NCBI GenBank assembly: GCA_013299105.1
Contig: JAAFJY010000004.1
Span: 146,423-210,422 of the forward strand
Source of the DNA: Chitinophagales bacterium
Lineage (GTDB): Bacteria > Bacteroidota > Bacteroidia > Chitinophagales > Saprospiraceae
Length of the DNA stretch: 64,000 bases
Direction of reading: 5' to 3'
Shown here: piece by piece, positions 8,292 to 41,929 of the stretch
Position numbering within the stretch: the first letter of the stretch is position 1
Layout of the letters: every line of letters begins with the position of its first letter
Position numbers and translations under genes: made by a program
The notes under the pieces: model-generated
The model's database searches: none
Told to the model about the DNA's origin: nothing
The model's input: the letters and a program-made list of their open reading frames with translations, nothing else

Positions 8292-10415
8292 ATGGCAAAA
8301 GATTTAAAGTTCACCAGAAACATCGGTATCGCTGCCCACATTGATGCGGGCAAAACCACGACCACCGAGCGTATTCTTTACTATACTGGTGTCAACTACA
8401 ATATGGGTGAGGTACACGACGGTGGTGCCACCATGGACTGGATGGCGCAAGAGCAAGAACGTGGTATCACGATCACTTCCGCTGCCACCAAAGCTGAGTG
8501 GGAATGGAAGAATCAAAAATATCCGTTCAACATCATCGATACCCCAGGTCACGTTGACTTTACCGTAGAGGTGAACCGTTCCTTGCGCGTATTGGACGGC
8601 TTGGTGTTCCTGTTTTGTGCCGTTTCGGGCGTTGAACCTCAATCGGAAACCAACTGGCGCCTAGCTGACAACTATAAGGTACCTCGCATCGGTTTCGTCA
8701 ACAAGATGGACCGCTCTGGTGCTGACTTCTTCAACGTGGTGAAAGACGTTGAAACCAAGCTTGGCTCCAAAGCCGTACCCCTTCAAGTACCCATCGGTGC
8801 GGAAGAGCGCTTCAAAGGCGTGGTCGACCTGATCACCAACGAAGCCATCGTATGGAATGAGCACGATAAAGGTAAGACTTATGAGGTTATCGACATCCCT
8901 GCTGACCTCGTGGATACCGTTAAAGAGTACCGCGAGAAACTGCTGGAATCAGTAGCCGAATATGACGATAGCCTGATGGAGAAGTTCTTTGAAGACCCCA
9001 ACAGCATCTCTGCCGAAGAAATCCGCGAAGCCGTACGCAAAGCCGTATGCAACCTGGATTTCGTGCCGATGATGTGTGGTTCGGCCTTCAAAAACAAAGG
9101 GGTACAAGCCGTATTGGATGCAGTGTGCGCTTACCTGCCTTCTCCATTGGACGTTGAAGCCATCAAGGGCACCAACCCCAAAACGGAGTTGGAAGAAGTT
9201 CGCCACGCAAAAGTAGAGGAGCCTTTCGCTGCTTTGGCGTTCAAAATTGCAACTGATCCATTTGTAGGCCGTTTGGCTTTCATGCGCGTTTACTCTGGCG
9301 CTTTGGATGGTGGTTCTTACGTGCTGAATACCCGTTCGGGTGACAAAGAGCGTATTTCTCGCCTCTACCAGATGCACGCCAACAAGCAAACCCAGATCGA
9401 ACGCGTTGAAGCTGGTGACATCGTGGCTGCCGTAGGTTTCAAGGACATCAAAACTGGTGACACCTTGTGCGACGAAAAAGCACCGATCGTACTGGAATCA
9501 ATGGTTTTCCCTGAGCCAGTAATCGCCATCGCCGTAGAACCTAAGTCGCAGAAAGACCTCGATAAGCTGGGCTTGGCTTTGTCTAAGTTGGCTGAAGAGG
9601 ATCCAACTTTCCGCGTTCGCTACGACGAAGAGACCAACCAAACGGTGATCTCTGGAATGGGTGAATTGCACTTGGAAATCATCGTTGACCGTCTGCGTCG
9701 CGAATTCAAAGTAGAATGTAACCAGGGTGCGCCTCAGGTTAACTACAAAGAAGCGCTGACCCAGAAGGTTTCTCACCGCGAGCGCTTGAAGAAGCAAACG
9801 GGTGGTTCAGGTTTGTTTGCCGATATGGAATTCGAACTCGGACCTGCCGATCAAAGCTTCCTCGAAGGCGAAGACTTCAAGAATGGCAAGACTCGCTTGC
9901 AGTTCGAATGGGGTATCGTCGGTGGTTCGATCGACAAAAACTACCAGAAGCCGATTCAGGATGGTTTCAAAGCCATGATGAACAATGGTATCCTGGCTGG
10001 TTACAACATCGACAGCATGAAGGTGCGCGTATTCGACGGCTCTATGCACGCCGTTGACTCCAAGCCTATCGCTTTTGAATTGTGCGCCAAGGAAGGCTTC
10101 CGCGAAGCCGCTCCAAAGTGCCGCCCAATCTTGATGGAACCAATCATGAAGCTGGAAGTAATCACTCCCGACGAATATGCTGGTTCTGTAATCGGCGACT
10201 TGAACCGTCGCCGTGGTATGCCAAAAGGTCAAGAAGCCCGCACTGGCGGTGCCATCTCGATCCAGGCAGAAGTACCGCTTTCTGAAATGTTCGGCTACGT
10301 AACCCAGTTGCGCACCATCACTTCAGGCCGCGCCAACTCTACGATGGAATTTGCACACTACGCTGAAGCTCCAGCGGGTGTTGCTAAGAAAGTTATTGAA
10401 GAGCGTAAGAAGTAA
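8292..10415 (+). CDS. fusA: Elongation factor G
   Basis: 707 residues. EF-G is the GTPase that drives tRNA-mRNA translocation. It shows P-loop '[20 protein letters not shown]', G2 '[13 protein letters not shown]', G3 DTPGHVDF and G4 'VNKMDR', then the domain III-V region with '[20 protein letters not shown]' and '[19 protein letters not shown]'. It is closer to the canonical housekeeping EF-G than to RF3 at 621. The str segment usually continues with tuf; here rpsJ follows after a 199-base gap. Confidence 0.98.
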
Positions 10416-38226: not shown

Positions 38227-38258
38227 TTTGGGACTCACCCATATAAACAGTACCTTTA
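38227..38258 (+). promoter_or_regulatory. Promoter of tRNA-like RNA copy 1
   Basis: TTTG (38227-38230), exactly 20 bases, TACCTTTA (38251-38258). The RNA's first base (38265) is six bases after the box, about where transcription should start. Confidence 0.75.
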
Positions 38259-38264
38259 CCAAAT

Positions 38265-38339
38265 GGAGTTCGTAGTTTAACTGGAAAAACACTGAATCAA
38301 CATTTCTGAGTTGGAGGTTCAAACCCTCTCGATGCTCCT
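38265..38339 (+). ncRNA. tRNA-like RNA, tandem copy 1
   Basis: 75 nt that fold as a tRNA: D-stem GTTT/AAAC with the loop GG, T-stem GGAGG/CCTCT with the canonical TTCAAAC loop, and an acceptor stem whose outer four pairs are GGAG/CTCC with an internal mismatch further in. The anticodon stem is CTGAA/TTCTG with one T-T mismatch and the loop is TCAACAT. Position 33 is C instead of the near-universal U, so normal decoding is doubtful. CCA is not encoded, which is usual in this phylum. The body is ~90% identical to copies 2 and 3, and the variation is concentrated in the anticodon arm. Confidence 0.7.
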
Positions 38340-38381
38340 ACTTGCACTTACATGCTGAAATTCCTATCGACCAAAACAAGT

Positions 38382-38413
38382 GTTGTTTCCTACCCATATA
38401 AACAATACCTTTG
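38382..38413 (+). promoter_or_regulatory. Promoter of tRNA-like RNA copy 2
   Basis: GTTG (38382-38385), 20 bases, TACCTTTG (38406-38413), again six bases before the RNA's 5' end. The 30 bases upstream are nearly identical to copy 1. Confidence 0.75.
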
Positions 38414-38419
38414 CCAAAT

Positions 38420-38494
38420 GGAGGTCGTAGTTTAAGTGGAAAAACACTGGATAGCTAATCCTGAGTTGGAGGTTCAAATCCTTTCGATGCTCCT
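38420..38494 (+). ncRNA. tRNA-like RNA, tandem copy 2
   Basis: 75 nt, same cloverleaf. The acceptor stem pairs GGAG/CTCC and GTCG/CGAT around a single bulged G on the 3' side, giving 8 pairs instead of 7. D-arm GTTT/AAAC, anticodon stem CTGGA/TCCTG (T-T mismatch), loop TAGCTAA, T-arm GGAGG/CCTTT with TTCAAAT. The formal anticodon would be GCU, but position 33 is A. Compared with copy 1 the anticodon stem has paired changes (GAA/TTC to GGA/TCC), evidence that the fold is under selection. Confidence 0.72.
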
Positions 38495-38578
38495 AAATTA
38501 TAAAAAAACTGGCCTAAATTCTGATTGACAAGAGCAATTATCGTTTCCTACCATTACAATTAATACCATTTGCTAAAT

Positions 38579-38652
38579 GGAGGTCGTAGTTTAAGTGGAA
38601 AAATGCGGGACAGCAAATCCGAGTTGGAGGTTCAAACCCTCTCGATACTCCT
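38579..38652 (+). ncRNA. tRNA-like RNA, tandem copy 3
   Basis: 74 nt. The acceptor stem is GGAG/CTCC and GTCG/CGAT with a bulged A; D-arm and T-arm as in copies 1 and 2. The anticodon stem keeps GGA/TCC and an outer C-G with one unpaired G; the loop is CAGCAAA (formal anticodon GCA, A at position 33). The upstream box is imperfect ('taccatttg', one base too long), so this copy may be expressed by read-through. It ends 22 bases before the ATG of the SDR gene. Confidence 0.68.
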
Positions 38653-38674: not shown

Positions 38675-40036
38675 ATGGATGAATTTCCTTTCAGCCCTGC
38701 AGAATGGGAGGCTTGCCTCAAAGTATTAAAAGCGCTGCAAGAAGACCCATTTCACAATCCCGATAATCAAGCATTCAAGACACTTTTTAGCTCGATTCAC
38801 AAAAAGGTTAGGAAAGCATCGCGCAATCATGCGCTGCAGGAACAACTTGCTCGTCAGGATGCTGAGTTGATCAAAAGTACGAGCATTGTAAAAAATGCAA
38901 TCAACAATACCACCCATTATCGGCATGAAGCCCAGCGAGGCACGGCCTACGGCGAATTAAACTCGCCGGAAAATTGCTACGTTTGCAACAACCCATACCA
39001 GCAATTGCATTTTTTCTACCATCGGCTTTGTCCAGCTTGTGCTGAGGAAAACTACGCTTACCGACAACTGCCCGTCGATTTGCGAGGTTGGCAGTTCATC
39101 ATCACGGGAGGACGGGTCAAAATTGGGTACGCCACTGCGCTCAAGTGCCTGCAATCGGGAGCCAAAGTGCTGTTGACTACTCGTTTTCCCGCATTGGCCT
39201 GGGAACAATTCAGTCAGGAGCCCGATTTTCAGGAATGGCGCGATAGGCTCACGATTTATGGCTTGGACTTGCGCAACCTCAAGGCAGTGGATACTTTCTG
39301 TCAATACTGTTTTGAAAACCTTGCCCATTTAGACGTCCTCATCAACAATGCTGCACAAACAATCAAATACCCAGATACCTACTATCAGCCTTTGATTCAA
39401 CGTGAGGGACACTTATTGAAAGCACATGCCAATCCGCAACTCTTGGGCAATCCGACACCAGTAGCGGCCCCGCAAGCCCAACTAATGACACCCCAAAACT
39501 GGCAAGAACTGCCACTGAATCGCTTTGGACAGCCCATAGATTTTCGCGAAAAAAACAGTTGGAATGCAACACTTACTGAGATAGGCTTGGAAGAGTTATT
39601 AGAGGTGAACCTAATCAACCATATTTCACCTTATGTACTTATTTCAGCCTTAACTCCGCTTCTAGAGAAAAATCCCCGGCCTGAAACATTTATCGTCAAC
39701 GTCACATCGTCGGAAGGGCAATTCAGTTATTCCAACAAAACGCCTCATCATCCGCACACCAATATGACCAAAGCCGCCCTCAATATGCTGACACGCACCT
39801 CAGCAGCGGAATATGTTGAGCGCAATATTTTTATGAATGCGGTGGATGTGGGATGGGTATCAACGGGCGCGAATGAGGAAAAACGCAGCCGACTGTTTGA
39901 TCAACTCCGCATCCCGCCCCTGGATTCTGTAGATGGAGCTATGCGGACTTTACACCCCATTGTAGAAATTGCGTTCAAGGGAAGAAAAGATTTATTCGGC
40001 AAACTTTTGAAAAATTACCATGAAGTAGAGTGGTGA
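38675..40036 (+). CDS. Short-chain dehydrogenase/reductase with N-terminal zinc-binding extension
   Basis: 453 residues. Residues ~1-95 are helical; near residue 102 come 'CYVCNNPYQQLHFFYHRLCP' and 'ACAEENYAYRQ', a CxxC-x15-CxxC zinc motif. From ~140 an SDR domain follows: NAD(P) motif 'FIITGGRVKIGYATALKCLQ' (a variant of TGxxxGxG), 'LDVLINNAAQTIKYP' (NNAA), catalytic S in 'NVTSSEGQFSY', and 'NMTKAALNM' in the usual YxxxK segment, where the Tyr appears as N/H-rich sequence, so activity is uncertain. The TGA stop (40034-40036) abuts the stop of the convergent gene with no gap. It lies just downstream of the tRNA-like array. Confidence 0.85.
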   Translation: MDEFPFSPAEWEACLKVLKALQEDPFHNPDNQAFKTLFSSIHKKVRKASRNHALQEQLARQDAELIKSTSIVKNAINNTTHYRHEAQRGTAYGELNSPENCYVCNNPYQQLHFFYHRLCPACAEENYAYRQLPVDLRGWQFIITGGRVKIGYATALKCLQSGAKVLLTTRFPALAWEQFSQEPDFQEWRDRLTIYGLDLRNLKAVDTFCQYCFENLAHLDVLINNAAQTIKYPDTYYQPLIQREGHLLKAHANPQLLGNPTPVAAPQAQLMTPQNWQELPLNRFGQPIDFREKNSWNATLTEIGLEELLEVNLINHISPYVLISALTPLLEKNPRPETFIVNVTSSEGQFSYSNKTPHHPHTNMTKAALNMLTRTSAAEYVERNIFMNAVDVGWVSTGANEEKRSRLFDQLRIPPLDSVDGAMRTLHPIVEIAFKGRKDLFGKLLKNYHEVEW

Positions 40037-41929
40037 TTAGGTCTCCACCTCCAGCATGCCAAAGTATTCGTCTTTGGTCAGTGGCCGAATCCTACCTTCG
40101 GGAATGACTTGTTGATTCATTTCGCAAATCAAAACATCACCTTGCCTTTTCAGCCTTTTGATGTATGGGATTACGTTTTCGTGTACCCTAAAAGTGGAGG
40201 CAATGGCCGCCAGTGGGTCGTCTTTGTATTCGGGGGATATCCAGAGCCAATGCTCGTGTTCGGTGGATGAACACCAACATTTGACGGCATAGATTTCTCT
40301 CGTTCTTCCAAAGCCTAGGAAAAAATCCGAACCAAGCAAATTGCCATCCGCTTGGTAAATTTCGTAGATGTTGTGTTTTCGGAAAGGTACTTTTTGCCCC
40401 TGCTCATCGTAACGAAAATAATTCAGTTCGATGCCTTCAGTGGCGATGCGTTCTGCGCCTAATTTTTCCATTAATACCGAAATGCCGATGTATTGGAAGG
40501 CAAAACGCCTAAGCAACCGATTTTCGATTTTGAAAAGCTGCTCATAGGTCAGGGGTTTTATTTTGGACCAAATTTTATCAAATGCAGCCAGGATTTTGGG
40601 TCGAGCAAACTCAGGGATGTCCCATTCGCGGTCAAACTCACGGTTTTCAAAACGCTGGATGGAATCATGGCTCATTTTTAGAATGGAGACCAAAAGGGGG
40701 AGGGGATGAGTTTGGAGATCAAGAAATGAGTTCCCTTCAAATTCACTGTAAACAATGAAGTTGTTTTCACTTAGCGAAAACCCTCGTTTTGCTTGATAAA
40801 ATACGTCATCAACCTTATCTGTATAGTTTTGCCATTGTTCGTTATACGCTATCCTATCTACATGTTTAAGTTTAGGAAGCGTTTTTTCAATTAGCCGATT
40901 GTATATTTTTCGGGTAACAACCTGTTTTACGGATTCCAGTTTCGGGAGCACATAATCATAATTCCAGAGTCTTCCTCTTATTTCAGATAATTGAGGGAAG
41001 CCAAAATTATAGCTTATGTTTAAATCCCCTCCCAGAAAACGGAGTTCTGGATAAGCTGCATCAGGTACCAAATCTTGGTCTTTTATTACGGGGGGATTAA
41101 CCGTGAAATCTCCCCGAATAGAATGCAATTTTGGAAATTTCATCCAAACTGTACTATTACACCTGAATTGTTGAACGATCTCTAGCTCGGGCGCAACTAT
41201 GATGGAGTTATGGCTAATGTATAGGAGTTTTCCTACCTGTTTTAAGCTTGGAAAGAAAATATCGGTTCCAGCTACGTGCAATTTTCCCTGAATCTGTTCA
41301 AGGCGAGAAAAATCAATGTCGTAGCAAAAAAGGCTCTTATTTTCGTTACCAATTTTGACTTGGTAAGCAAATTCGAGTGAGGAAAATCGAATTCTGTCAG
41401 CATTAACTTGAATAATACCATAGATGTTTTTTGAGGTAATTTCAAGGTTTGGAGCATCAATGTTAAGGTTATAGCAACCATGTTCAGGTAAAGCATCTGC
41501 CTCAGCTTGTGTTTTAACTTCGATGAAAGGTAGTTCAAAAATGTTGGGAACAGAAGTTTCAATTTCCTTGGCTCCTTCAAATTTCCCAGCCCACAATAAG
41601 GTCGATAAATCAGTGGGCTTTAGGACGGTCAATTTCCCACCAACACGGTTCAGTTTGGGCAACTCAGCGCCTAGCTCATGCACATTACATGTACCCAAAA
41701 CGATTTGTAAAACCGGAAAACAAGCGTTTGATGCATCAATCGACAAATCACCTTTTACTTCAAGCAAGTGGGGGAAACTGCAATTGACAGCCCTAACTTT
41801 GATGTTGCCATACCACTCAGTAATCGGTAGGACGGCATTTTTTAGGTAGATTTCCAACTGGATTGGTCCATCTTGAGTAGGGAGTGAAAATGATAGATCA
41901 GTTTCTGTTTTGATGCGGATTGTTTTCAT
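40037..41929 (-). CDS. Repeat protein of unknown function with unique C-terminal domain
   Basis: 630 residues. Residues ~45-360 contain irregular ~22-residue repeats of the form F/YP.L..I.GdL.I ('FPHLLEVKGDLSI', 'LPKLNRVGGKLTV', 'FPSLKQVGKLLYI', 'FPKLHSIRGDFTV', 'YPELRFLGGDLNI'), suggesting a beta-solenoid like receptor-L or leucine-rich folds. The C-terminal ~250 residues ('GSDFFLGFGRTREIYAVKCW', 'STEHEHWLWI', 'DPLAAIASTFRVHENVIPYI') are not recognised. There is no signal peptide, so it is cytoplasmic. It is convergent with the SDR gene and preceded 82 bases upstream by a tRNA-like RNA gene on its own strand, with no terminator between. Confidence 0.75.
   Translation of the reverse strand: MKTIRIKTETDLSFSLPTQDGPIQLEIYLKNAVLPITEWYGNIKVRAVNCSFPHLLEVKGDLSIDASNACFPVLQIVLGTCNVHELGAELPKLNRVGGKLTVLKPTDLSTLLWAGKFEGAKEIETSVPNIFELPFIEVKTQAEADALPEHGCYNLNIDAPNLEITSKNIYGIIQVNADRIRFSSLEFAYQVKIGNENKSLFCYDIDFSRLEQIQGKLHVAGTDIFFPSLKQVGKLLYISHNSIIVAPELEIVQQFRCNSTVWMKFPKLHSIRGDFTVNPPVIKDQDLVPDAAYPELRFLGGDLNISYNFGFPQLSEIRGRLWNYDYVLPKLESVKQVVTRKIYNRLIEKTLPKLKHVDRIAYNEQWQNYTDKVDDVFYQAKRGFSLSENNFIVYSEFEGNSFLDLQTHPLPLLVSILKMSHDSIQRFENREFDREWDIPEFARPKILAAFDKIWSKIKPLTYEQLFKIENRLLRRFAFQYIGISVLMEKLGAERIATEGIELNYFRYDEQGQKVPFRKHNIYEIYQADGNLLGSDFFLGFGRTREIYAVKCWCSSTEHEHWLWISPEYKDDPLAAIASTFRVHENVIPYIKRLKRQGDVLICEMNQQVIPEGRIRPLTKDEYFGMLEVET

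What the first reader, a model, noticed from the sequence alone, without database searches (positions are those of the whole stretch)
38227..38652. Three tandem tRNA-like RNA genes, each with its own promoter, with abnormal acceptor stems and no U33
Seen: three ~75-nt near-identical bodies at 38265, 38420 and 38579, each with a tRNA D-arm (loop GG), a T-arm with a TTCAAA[C/T] loop and an outer GGAG/CTCC acceptor. The acceptor has 8 pairs with a bulge or mismatch, position 33 is C or A, and the anticodon arm is the most variable part, with paired changes that keep the stem. Copies 1 and 2 have TTTG/GTTG-N20-TACCTTT[A/G] six bases before the 5' end. Established: U33 and a 7-bp acceptor are near-universal in decoding tRNAs; 8/4 and 9/3 allo-tRNAs and tRNA-like Y-RNA modules are known exceptions, but none fits this pattern as far as I can tell. 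Inference: a non-decoding or specially charged tRNA-like family.
Basis: partly seen in the sequence, partly recalled or inferred. Interest (0 to 1): 0.82.

Follow-up and report, generated by a model that had tools for sequence, protein, structure and literature searches.

The report
tRNA-mimic array beside atypical dehydrogenase-fold gene
Three small tRNA look-alike genes sit next to an unusual enzyme-like gene, and the same pairing recurs in bacteria of several phyla, often beside RNA-repair genes, which points to an undescribed system that makes imitation tRNAs.

Summary
In detail: three tRNA-like bodies with bulged 8-pair acceptors and no U33 lie at 38265-38339, 38420-38494 and 38579-38652. 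They are not decayed host tRNAs. They belong to a family whose partner is the next gene, a 453-aa zinc-ribbon protein of SDR fold (38675-40036). In 18 of 18 other members found of the window's SDR clade (13 from a genome scan, 5 from a later sample), 1-8 tRNA-likes lie beside the SDR gene. The pairing recurs in Cyanobacteria, Deinococcus, Variovorax, SAR324, Armatimonadota and others, and is rare in more distant SDR relatives. The stems covary. Bodies are conserved while anticodon loops diverge: between two sister species all 4 substitutions fall in anticodon loops. 32 of 58 seven-base loops lack U33. In 11 of the 18, RNA-repair enzymes (T4-type ligases, Pnkp, RtcB, RlaP) are nearby, against 0 of 61 controls; the window has none. 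Best reading: decoding-defective tRNA mimics held by an SDR-fold protein, acting as bait, inhibitor or sensor in tRNA damage and repair. Module and family are well supported; the mechanism is inference (about 0.4). No record of this pairing appeared in the listings searched; one key paper was not held.

The parts
38227..38258 (+). promoter-like element of copy 1: TTTG-N20-TACCTTTA, ending 6 bases before the RNA
   Evidence: read directly; resemblance to the Bacteroidota promoter consensus is recalled
38265..38339 (+). tRNA-like copy 1, loop TCAACAT (C33, triplet AAC)
38382..38413 (+). promoter-like element of copy 2: GTTG-N20-TACCTTTG
   Evidence: read directly
38420..38494 (+). tRNA-like copy 2, loop TAGCTAA (A33, triplet GCT); differs from the host tRNA-Ser(GCT) loop only at position 33
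38564..38572 (+). weaker -7-like element of copy 3 (TACCATTTG)
   Evidence: read directly
38579..38652 (+). tRNA-like copy 3, loop CAGCAAA by hand (A33, triplet GCA)
   Evidence: the scripts took an 8-base loop for this copy
38675..40036 (+). partner gene: 453-aa protein with basic N-terminal helix, four-Cys zinc-ribbon-like motif (C101, C104, C119, C122) and SDR fold; Thr in place of the catalytic Tyr
40037..41929 (-). leucine-rich-repeat-like protein, 630 aa; homologues flank the SDR in L095, L184, L187
   Evidence: Recep_L_domain in the L184 homologue only; no Pfam match for the window protein itself; own fold model is of low confidence

Best explanation
The window holds one copy of an undescribed RNA-protein module: an array of imitation tRNAs plus a dedicated SDR-fold zinc-ribbon protein, here also with an LRR-like protein. 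Shown: the RNAs keep a covarying cloverleaf, often lose U33, in many copies carry a bulged or lengthened acceptor-T domain, diverge mainly in the anticodon arm, and are tied to this SDR across phyla and, in many Bacteroidota, to RNA-repair enzymes. Inferred: they are made, bound by the SDR-fold protein rather than used on the ribosome, and display anticodon loops resembling a set of cellular tRNAs (Ser-GCU, Ala-UGC, Gly, Asp, Trp-CCA). An anticodon nuclease (a toxin or phage-triggered effector) engages the mimic instead of real tRNAs; the mimic acts as competitive inhibitor or bait, or its cleavage is sensed through the SDR or LRR proteins, and neighbouring ligases mend the real tRNAs. Changing nucleases would explain the fast change of the loops.
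For: tRNA-like beside the SDR in all 13 other clade members of the scan and in 5 of 5 genomes with the SDR from a later sample of 395; the 19 form one clade (support 93) and none of the 5 repeats a scan member. R1, built from the window's three copies only, gives 51 matches at E<=3e-4 in 277 kb (26 loci), 48 of them within 1 kb of the SDR. Covariation: 96.9% of cells paired, 20 of 21 pairs with double changes. Sister species: 4 of 4 substitutions in anticodon loops, 0 in the other 204 columns, while the locus differs by 5%. Repair enzymes near 11 of 18 other clade members, 0 of 61 control SDR loci by homology. 18 of 58 loops equal a canonical loop of the window genome's tRNAs or differ from one only at position 33. 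SDR fold confirmed with Thr for the catalytic Tyr in 85 of 85. [quoted passage not shown]
Against: No expression, binding, charging or cleavage data. 26 of 58 loops keep U33 and could in principle decode. The window shows no homologue of the repair enzymes in its 64 kb; the genome's RtcB is on another contig. Repair enzymes were found near only some Bacteroidota members: not near L095-L098, L106, L108 or L187, and by homology in none of the non-Bacteroidota loci. The 11 positives include close relatives, so they are not independent, and the control search used enzymes taken from the positive loci. PADLOC found nothing for the SDR, the LRR-like or the two commonest neighbour proteins. The same paper reports that YrlA is not cut by the nuclease in question, which fits an inhibitor, not a bait. 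I identified no anticodon nuclease next to the arrays, but annotated only part of the neighbours. The invariant SDR residues could mean an active enzyme acting on the RNA or on an attached amino acid.
Confidence: 0.4

Rival explanations
1. Dedicated aminoacyl carriers: the tRNA-likes are charged by host synthetases but kept off the ribosome (no U33, altered acceptor-T domain), and the SDR-fold protein oxidises or reduces the amino acid or otherwise uses the charged RNA.
For: Intact cloverleaf with acceptor; L111 encodes a CCA end after an 8-pair acceptor; anticodon triplets are a restricted set, mostly NNC, GCT or CCA; SDR fold with invariant non-classical residues H359, H361, N363, D391.
Against: Catalytic Tyr is Thr in 85 of 85, and the position of the catalytic Ser is Ala in 62 of 63 rows not labelled tRNA-like and 8 of 22 labelled ones; no synthetase or aminoacyl transferase among the 46 proteins given to Pfam, which is only part of the neighbours; loop diversification without body change is not expected of a fixed identity set.
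Confidence: 0.2
2. Substrate or maturation platform: the SDR-fold protein is a tRNA-binding scaffold that matures, stores or helps repair tRNA, and the tRNA-likes are its regulators, comparable in role to the SDR subunit of human mitochondrial RNase P (recalled).
For: Mostly conserved basic residues in the N-terminal helix (K43, K47, R50); repair neighbours; degenerate SDR active site.
Against: The 63 SDR relatives not labelled as carrying tRNA-likes share the invariant motifs, so the fold's basic job may not need them; does not explain loop divergence.
Confidence: 0.2
3. Ordinary but unusual decoding tRNAs, such as phage-type accessory tRNAs acquired with a mobile cassette.
For: ARAGORN and Rfam call many of them tRNA; 26 of 58 loops have U33; weak matches to tRNAs of phages and of a Paenibacillus plasmid tRNA cluster (best E 0.05); sporadic distribution.
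Against: U33 lost in 32 of 58 against 0 of 32 distinct host arms; bulges in T-stem or acceptor; consistent pairing with one protein family.
Confidence: 0.12
4. Decayed or selfish tRNA copies (pseudogenes, integration scars) hitch-hiking with a mobile SDR gene.
For: Patchy occurrence: SDR not found at E<=1e-40 in the 4 other genomes of the genus.
Against: Covariation, zero body changes between sister species at 5% locus divergence, recurrence across phyla.
Confidence: 0.03

Closest known systems
rsr-yrlBA-rtcBA RNA-repair operon with Y RNA (YrlA) and Ro60/Rsr
   Same: A tRNA-like noncoding RNA beside a dedicated RNA-binding protein and RNA ligase; suggested inhibitor of an anticodon nuclease (PMC7790460, passages read)
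   Different: Here the RNAs are whole cloverleaves in arrays with changing anticodon loops; the partner is an SDR-fold protein, not Ro60; no Rfam Y RNA match in the window or L086-L089
allo-tRNA and selC* tRNA (Mukai et al. 2017, through review PMC7609411, passages read)
   Same: Altered acceptor-T branch, diverse anticodons, irregular polycistrons reported
   Different: Those have 8/4 or 9/3 arms, a long variable arm and serine identity; these mostly have a 5-pair T-stem and a 4-5 base variable region
bacterial tRNA-Sec
   Same: Acceptor longer than 7 pairs in many copies
   Different: No long variable arm, and no UCA among the 58 listed triplets
phage and plasmid tRNA arrays (e.g. L090, 27 tRNAs)
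   Same: Tandem tRNA genes on mobile DNA
   Different: L090 holds tRNAs of many isotypes; no SDR among its four annotated features
T4 Pnkp/Rnl1 and RtcB/RlaP RNA-repair systems
   Same: Such enzymes lie beside the module in many Bacteroidota
   Different: The passages read do not mention a tRNA-mimic array with an SDR; Burroughs and Aravind 2016 was not held
pseudo-tRNA tRNAOther of Bacillus cereus (PMC3399842, listing only)
   Same: tRNA-like RNA outside translation
   Different: The listing mentions neither an SDR nor an array

Membership tests
decoding tRNA | U33 in the anticodon loop | tested here: not met
   0 of 3 in the window; 26 of 58 in the family; 32 of 32 distinct host arms fetched
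decoding tRNA | regular 7-pair acceptor and 5-pair T-stem | tested here: not met
   window: 8 pairs plus one extra 3' base; family: uninterrupted acceptor runs of 9 or more in 18 of 56 parsed, 0 of 27 parsed host tRNAs; T-stem bulges in 13 copies, 0 of 27 host. Many copies do fit 7 or 8 pairs
decoding tRNA | aminoacylation and ribosome use | not testable with these tools
   needs RNA work
allo-tRNA | 12-pair branch as 8/4 or 9/3 with long variable arm | tested here: not met
   T-stem 5 pairs, variable region 4 bases, one fewer in copy 3
tRNA-Sec | 8/5 branch with long variable arm and UCA anticodon | tested here: not met
   8/5-like branch with a bulge, but no long arm and other triplets
Y RNA / YrlA | Y RNA covariance model and neighbouring Ro60 | tested here: not met
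   no such Rfam match in the window or L086-L089; no TROVE hit among the 46 proteins given to Pfam
classical SDR oxidoreductase | SDR Rossmann fold | tested here: met
   model pLDDT 88.6; the Foldseek hits listed are SDRs, TMt mostly 0.73-0.81
classical SDR oxidoreductase | Tyr of YxxxK | tested here: not met
   Thr in 85 of 85 aligned sequences
RNA-repair operon | RNA ligase or end-healing enzyme in the neighbourhood | tested here: inconclusive
   11 of 18 other clade members; not in the window
known anti-phage defence system | match to PADLOC-DB models | tested here: not met
   10 proteins: no match for the SDR, LRR-like, c1 or DUF434 proteins; only a neighbouring TIR protein in L099 (ThsB-like) and a weak TPR match in L098

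The most novel reading that the evidence does not exclude
A new kind of bacterial immune or tRNA-protection system: cells keep a small changing library of decoding-dead tRNA mimics, held by an SDR-fold protein, whose anticodon loops evolve rapidly as bait or inhibitors against anticodon nucleases, coupled to RNA ligases that mend real tRNAs and in some loci to LRR proteins as sensors or effectors.
Probability: 0.3. Interest if true: 0.93.

Novelty: categorically new. Interest (0 to 1): 0.86.

Why it matters
It would add a family of structured RNAs, at present called odd tRNA genes by gene finders or missed, with a protein partner of unknown biochemistry, spread over several phyla. The anticodon loop changing while the body stays fixed is the reverse of what decoding demands, and makes a direct test possible of whether bacteria fight tRNA-cutting toxins with decoys. 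It also warns annotation pipelines that a 'tRNA' beside this SDR may not decode.

Tried and rejected
Looking for relatives by RNA sequence failed. R1 matched in 93 of 100 genomes (window's included), and the 29 loci fetched from the best places outside the window genome are all called tRNA by ARAGORN (the list of matches was cut). DNA BLAST of 395 class genomes gave, outside the window genome, only fragments of 19-21 bases in 3 genomes. Phage and plasmid searches gave only weak matches (best E 0.05, in a Paenibacillus plasmid tRNA cluster) and two viral pattern scans nothing. The partner gene solved it. Decayed host tRNA: rejected. A general '8-pair acceptor' rule: rejected as a sole criterion, since 16 of 27 host tRNAs also give runs of 8, by counting the -1:73 pair. 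Mimicry of whole host arms: not supported in the window; the nearest of 32 host arms differ at 5-7 of 17 bases, though the loop of copy 2 matches apart from position 33. The pairs were chosen for body divergence of at most 12%, so its 7.7/34/41% contrast is biased; the sister-species comparison is the cleaner test. Translations of L087 and L088 were in wrong frames and not used. The LRR-like fold model (mean pLDDT 57.8) was not searched.

Full report
WHAT IS THERE. The three bodies are real and as described. Aligned on U8-A9, the D-arm and the T-arm, each has 8 acceptor pairs with one extra base on the 3' strand, a 4-pair D-stem, an anticodon stem with a defect at its second pair, a variable region of 4 bases (one fewer in copy 3, depending on alignment), and a normal T-arm. 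Position 33 is C, A, A. Only copies 1 and 2 pass Rfam's tRNA cut-off. No fourth copy was found in the genome; the Rfam tRNA model gives 49 matches there, two of them these copies (150 of 431 candidates scored).

THE PARTNER GENE. Searches by RNA sequence found only tRNAs and fragments. The gene 22 bases after copy 3, a 453-aa SDR-fold protein, has no match at E<=1e-40 in the 4 other genomes of the genus. Its relative on a Deinococcus plasmid has a tRNA gene directly upstream. ARAGORN and model R1 together found tRNA-likes beside the SDR in L095-L109, L111, L113 and L114, ARAGORN alone in L116 and L127; Deinococcus L086 is a further case. Of the 26 loci, seven gave no R1 match: L110, L112, L115, L116, L117, L118, L175; all but L116 are empty by ARAGORN too, and L175 is cut off by its contig end. 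Numbers per locus run from 1 to 8. In L098-L104 the array begins 4-5 bases after the SDR stop codon; in the window, L095, L108 and the loci of other phyla except L106 it lies upstream.

CONTROLS. R1 over 60 other SDR loci gave 2 matches: L133, an ordinary-looking tRNA-Arg about 1.7 kb past the SDR, and L176, a viral-collection contig where two tRNA-like genes lie just upstream on the opposite strand, one with loop CCGTCAA by eye. ARAGORN adds L127 and an ordinary-looking tRNA-Leu upstream of the SDR in L170. So 57 of the 60 show no tRNA or tRNA-like within 1 kb. On an 85-row SDR tree the label needs 6 changes against 19.8 for shuffled labels, 0 of 500 as low; the 14 rows of one clade, window included, all carry it, and a clade of 53 rows carries none (L176 was entered as 'none'). 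The tree is a quick one with a warning about long branches. A fresh test followed: of 395 genomes of the phylum, 5 besides the window's have the SDR at E<=1e-90, and 5 of 5 have two to four tRNA-likes beside it. Put into the tree, these 5 join the same clade (19 rows, support 93), and none repeats a scan member: nearest scan identity 63-87%. One clade member, L106, comes from a contig labelled Acinetobacter.

RNA FEATURES. On the 53 rows aligned to R1, two of which are probably chance matches, 96.9% of cells pair and 20 of 21 pairs show double changes, above all 500 shuffles. This alignment is fitted to the model, and any set of tRNAs would covary, so it shows working cloverleaves, not their role. 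Of 72 members examined 70 were parsed and 58 have 7-base loops: U33 in 26, C in 17, A in 12, G in 3; L127 was not in this set. All 32 distinct arms of the host tRNAs fetched have U33 (30 of the 49 tRNA matches were fetched as loci). Position 36 is C in 35 of 58 and G in 1; the commonest triplets are GCT, TGC and CCA. Uninterrupted acceptor runs of 9 or more occur in 18 of 56 parsed copies and 0 of 27 parsed host tRNAs (2 and 5 not parsed); runs of 8 are uninformative because host tRNAs often pair -1 with 73. A one-base T-stem bulge appears in 13 copies (12 in Flavobacterium, 1 in Chitinophaga; a fourteenth rests on a poor parse) and in none of the 27. Promoter-like boxes lie 6-8 bases before the RNA in the window and before both copies in Variovorax L116 (TAGAAT): read by eye, not tested against chance.

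LOOPS CHANGE, BODIES DO NOT. L177 and L178 come from two species of one genus (group code g184). Their 3-kb loci are 95% identical and the SDRs agree at 435 of 453 residues. Of their three tRNA-likes, one is identical; the other two differ by 3 and 1 bases, all in the anticodon loop; 0 differences in the other 204 aligned columns. Placing 4 independent changes at random would put all of them in the 20 loop columns with probability about 6e-5 (own arithmetic); the 3 in one loop may be one event. In 75 pairs chosen for similar bodies, difference is 7.7% in body, 34% in anticodon stem, 41% in loop (the choice biases this, and many pairs share members). 13 of 58 loops are identical to a canonical loop of the window genome's tRNAs and 5 more, including window copy 2, differ only at position 33.

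NEIGHBOURS. Pfam identifies T4-type RNA ligase 1 with Pnkp (L099, L188; homologues in L101-L103), RtcB (L100, L186; homologues in L105, L185), RlaP (L105, L184; homologue in L185), a T4 Rnl2-type ligase (L184) and RLIG1 (L104, L186). So 11 of 18 other clade members have a repair enzyme near, within about 5 kb for the 13 scan loci and about 9 kb for the 5 later ones. The 11 are not independent (L099 and L101-L103 are close relatives, L184 and L185 sisters). Homology search with six of these enzymes hits 7 of 24 loci with, or close to, the module, 0 of 61 control SDR loci and 0 of 33 other loci of relatives, most of these only 3 kb long. The queries came from the positive loci, so divergent repair enzymes in controls could be missed. 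DUF434-DUF5616 relatives are beside it in 8 loci and an unnamed 'c1' protein in 11, apart from an end fragment in L096 (Pfam checked DUF434 in two). LRR proteins recur: relatives of the LRR_6 protein of L107 follow the SDR in L113, L114, L116, L127, L175 and, over 67 residues only, L086, and relatives of the window's 40037-41929 protein lie beside it in L095, L184 and L187; the L184 one matches Recep_L_domain. The window itself has no homologue of these repair enzymes.

THE PROTEIN. AlphaFold gives a confident model (pLDDT 88.6) whose listed Foldseek matches are classical SDRs. In 85 aligned sequences the four zinc-ribbon-like Cys, R147 and K149 of the TGGRxKIG motif, and H359, H361, N363, K366, D391, W394 are invariant, and the catalytic Tyr is Thr. 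Basic residues of an N-terminal helix (K43, K47, R50) are mostly shared with relatives not labelled as carrying tRNA-likes. NCBIfam gives only general SDR models far below their cut-offs, and PDB only general SDRs.

MECHANISM. Shown: a conserved RNA-protein module, cloverleaf under selection, loop divergence, link to RNA repair in part of the clade. Inferred: non-decoding, bound by the SDR-fold protein, bait, inhibitor or sensor for anticodon nucleases. PMC7824862 and PMC6514570 (passages) describe RNA repair as a response to such RNase effectors, RlaP as a partner of RNA ligases, and TROVE proteins with a tRNA-like partner as repair platforms. [quoted passage not shown]

NOVELTY. Ten full-text searches listed no paper whose title or abstract start speaks of a tRNA-like array with an SDR; several lists were cut. 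Most subscription papers are not held, and the main survey of RNA-repair systems (Burroughs and Aravind 2016) was not held, so it may mention the SDR or neighbouring genes. I rate the module categorically new because it fails the tests for allo-tRNA, tRNA-Sec, Y RNA and decoding tRNA, while noting that it may work like the Y RNA branch of RNA-repair operons.

Noticed in passing
L176:4767-4902: A contig of the viral collection has two tRNA-like genes (one with loop CCGTCAA, C33) upstream of an SDR relative, on the opposite strand; a possible virus-borne or organelle-like example.
   Followed up: partly
L086:4690-4800: Upstream of the Deinococcus tRNA-like there is a second T-arm-like stretch followed by a terminator-like hairpin, perhaps a decayed or divergent further copy.
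   Followed up: no
L106: A contig labelled Acinetobacter carries an SDR 53% identical to the window's with two tRNA-likes; either transfer between phyla or a mixed bin.
   Followed up: no
L127:4501-4579: Nonomuraea tRNA-like whose acceptor can form 9-10 pairs and which seems to end in an encoded CCA.
   Followed up: partly
L099:7137-10910: LRR-Roc-COR-TIR protein (ThsB-like TIR) just after the tRNA-like array.
   Followed up: partly
L105:7440-9539: An elongation-factor-G-like gene lies about 0.8 kb after the array; the window has an EF-G homologue at 8319-10397, 28 kb from its array.
   Followed up: no
L090:1552-4264: Paenibacillus plasmid with 27 tRNA genes in a row near a DndB gene.
   Followed up: no
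L098:8833-8985: A second pair of tRNA-likes about 3.9 kb from the SDR, so arrays can be split.
   Followed up: no
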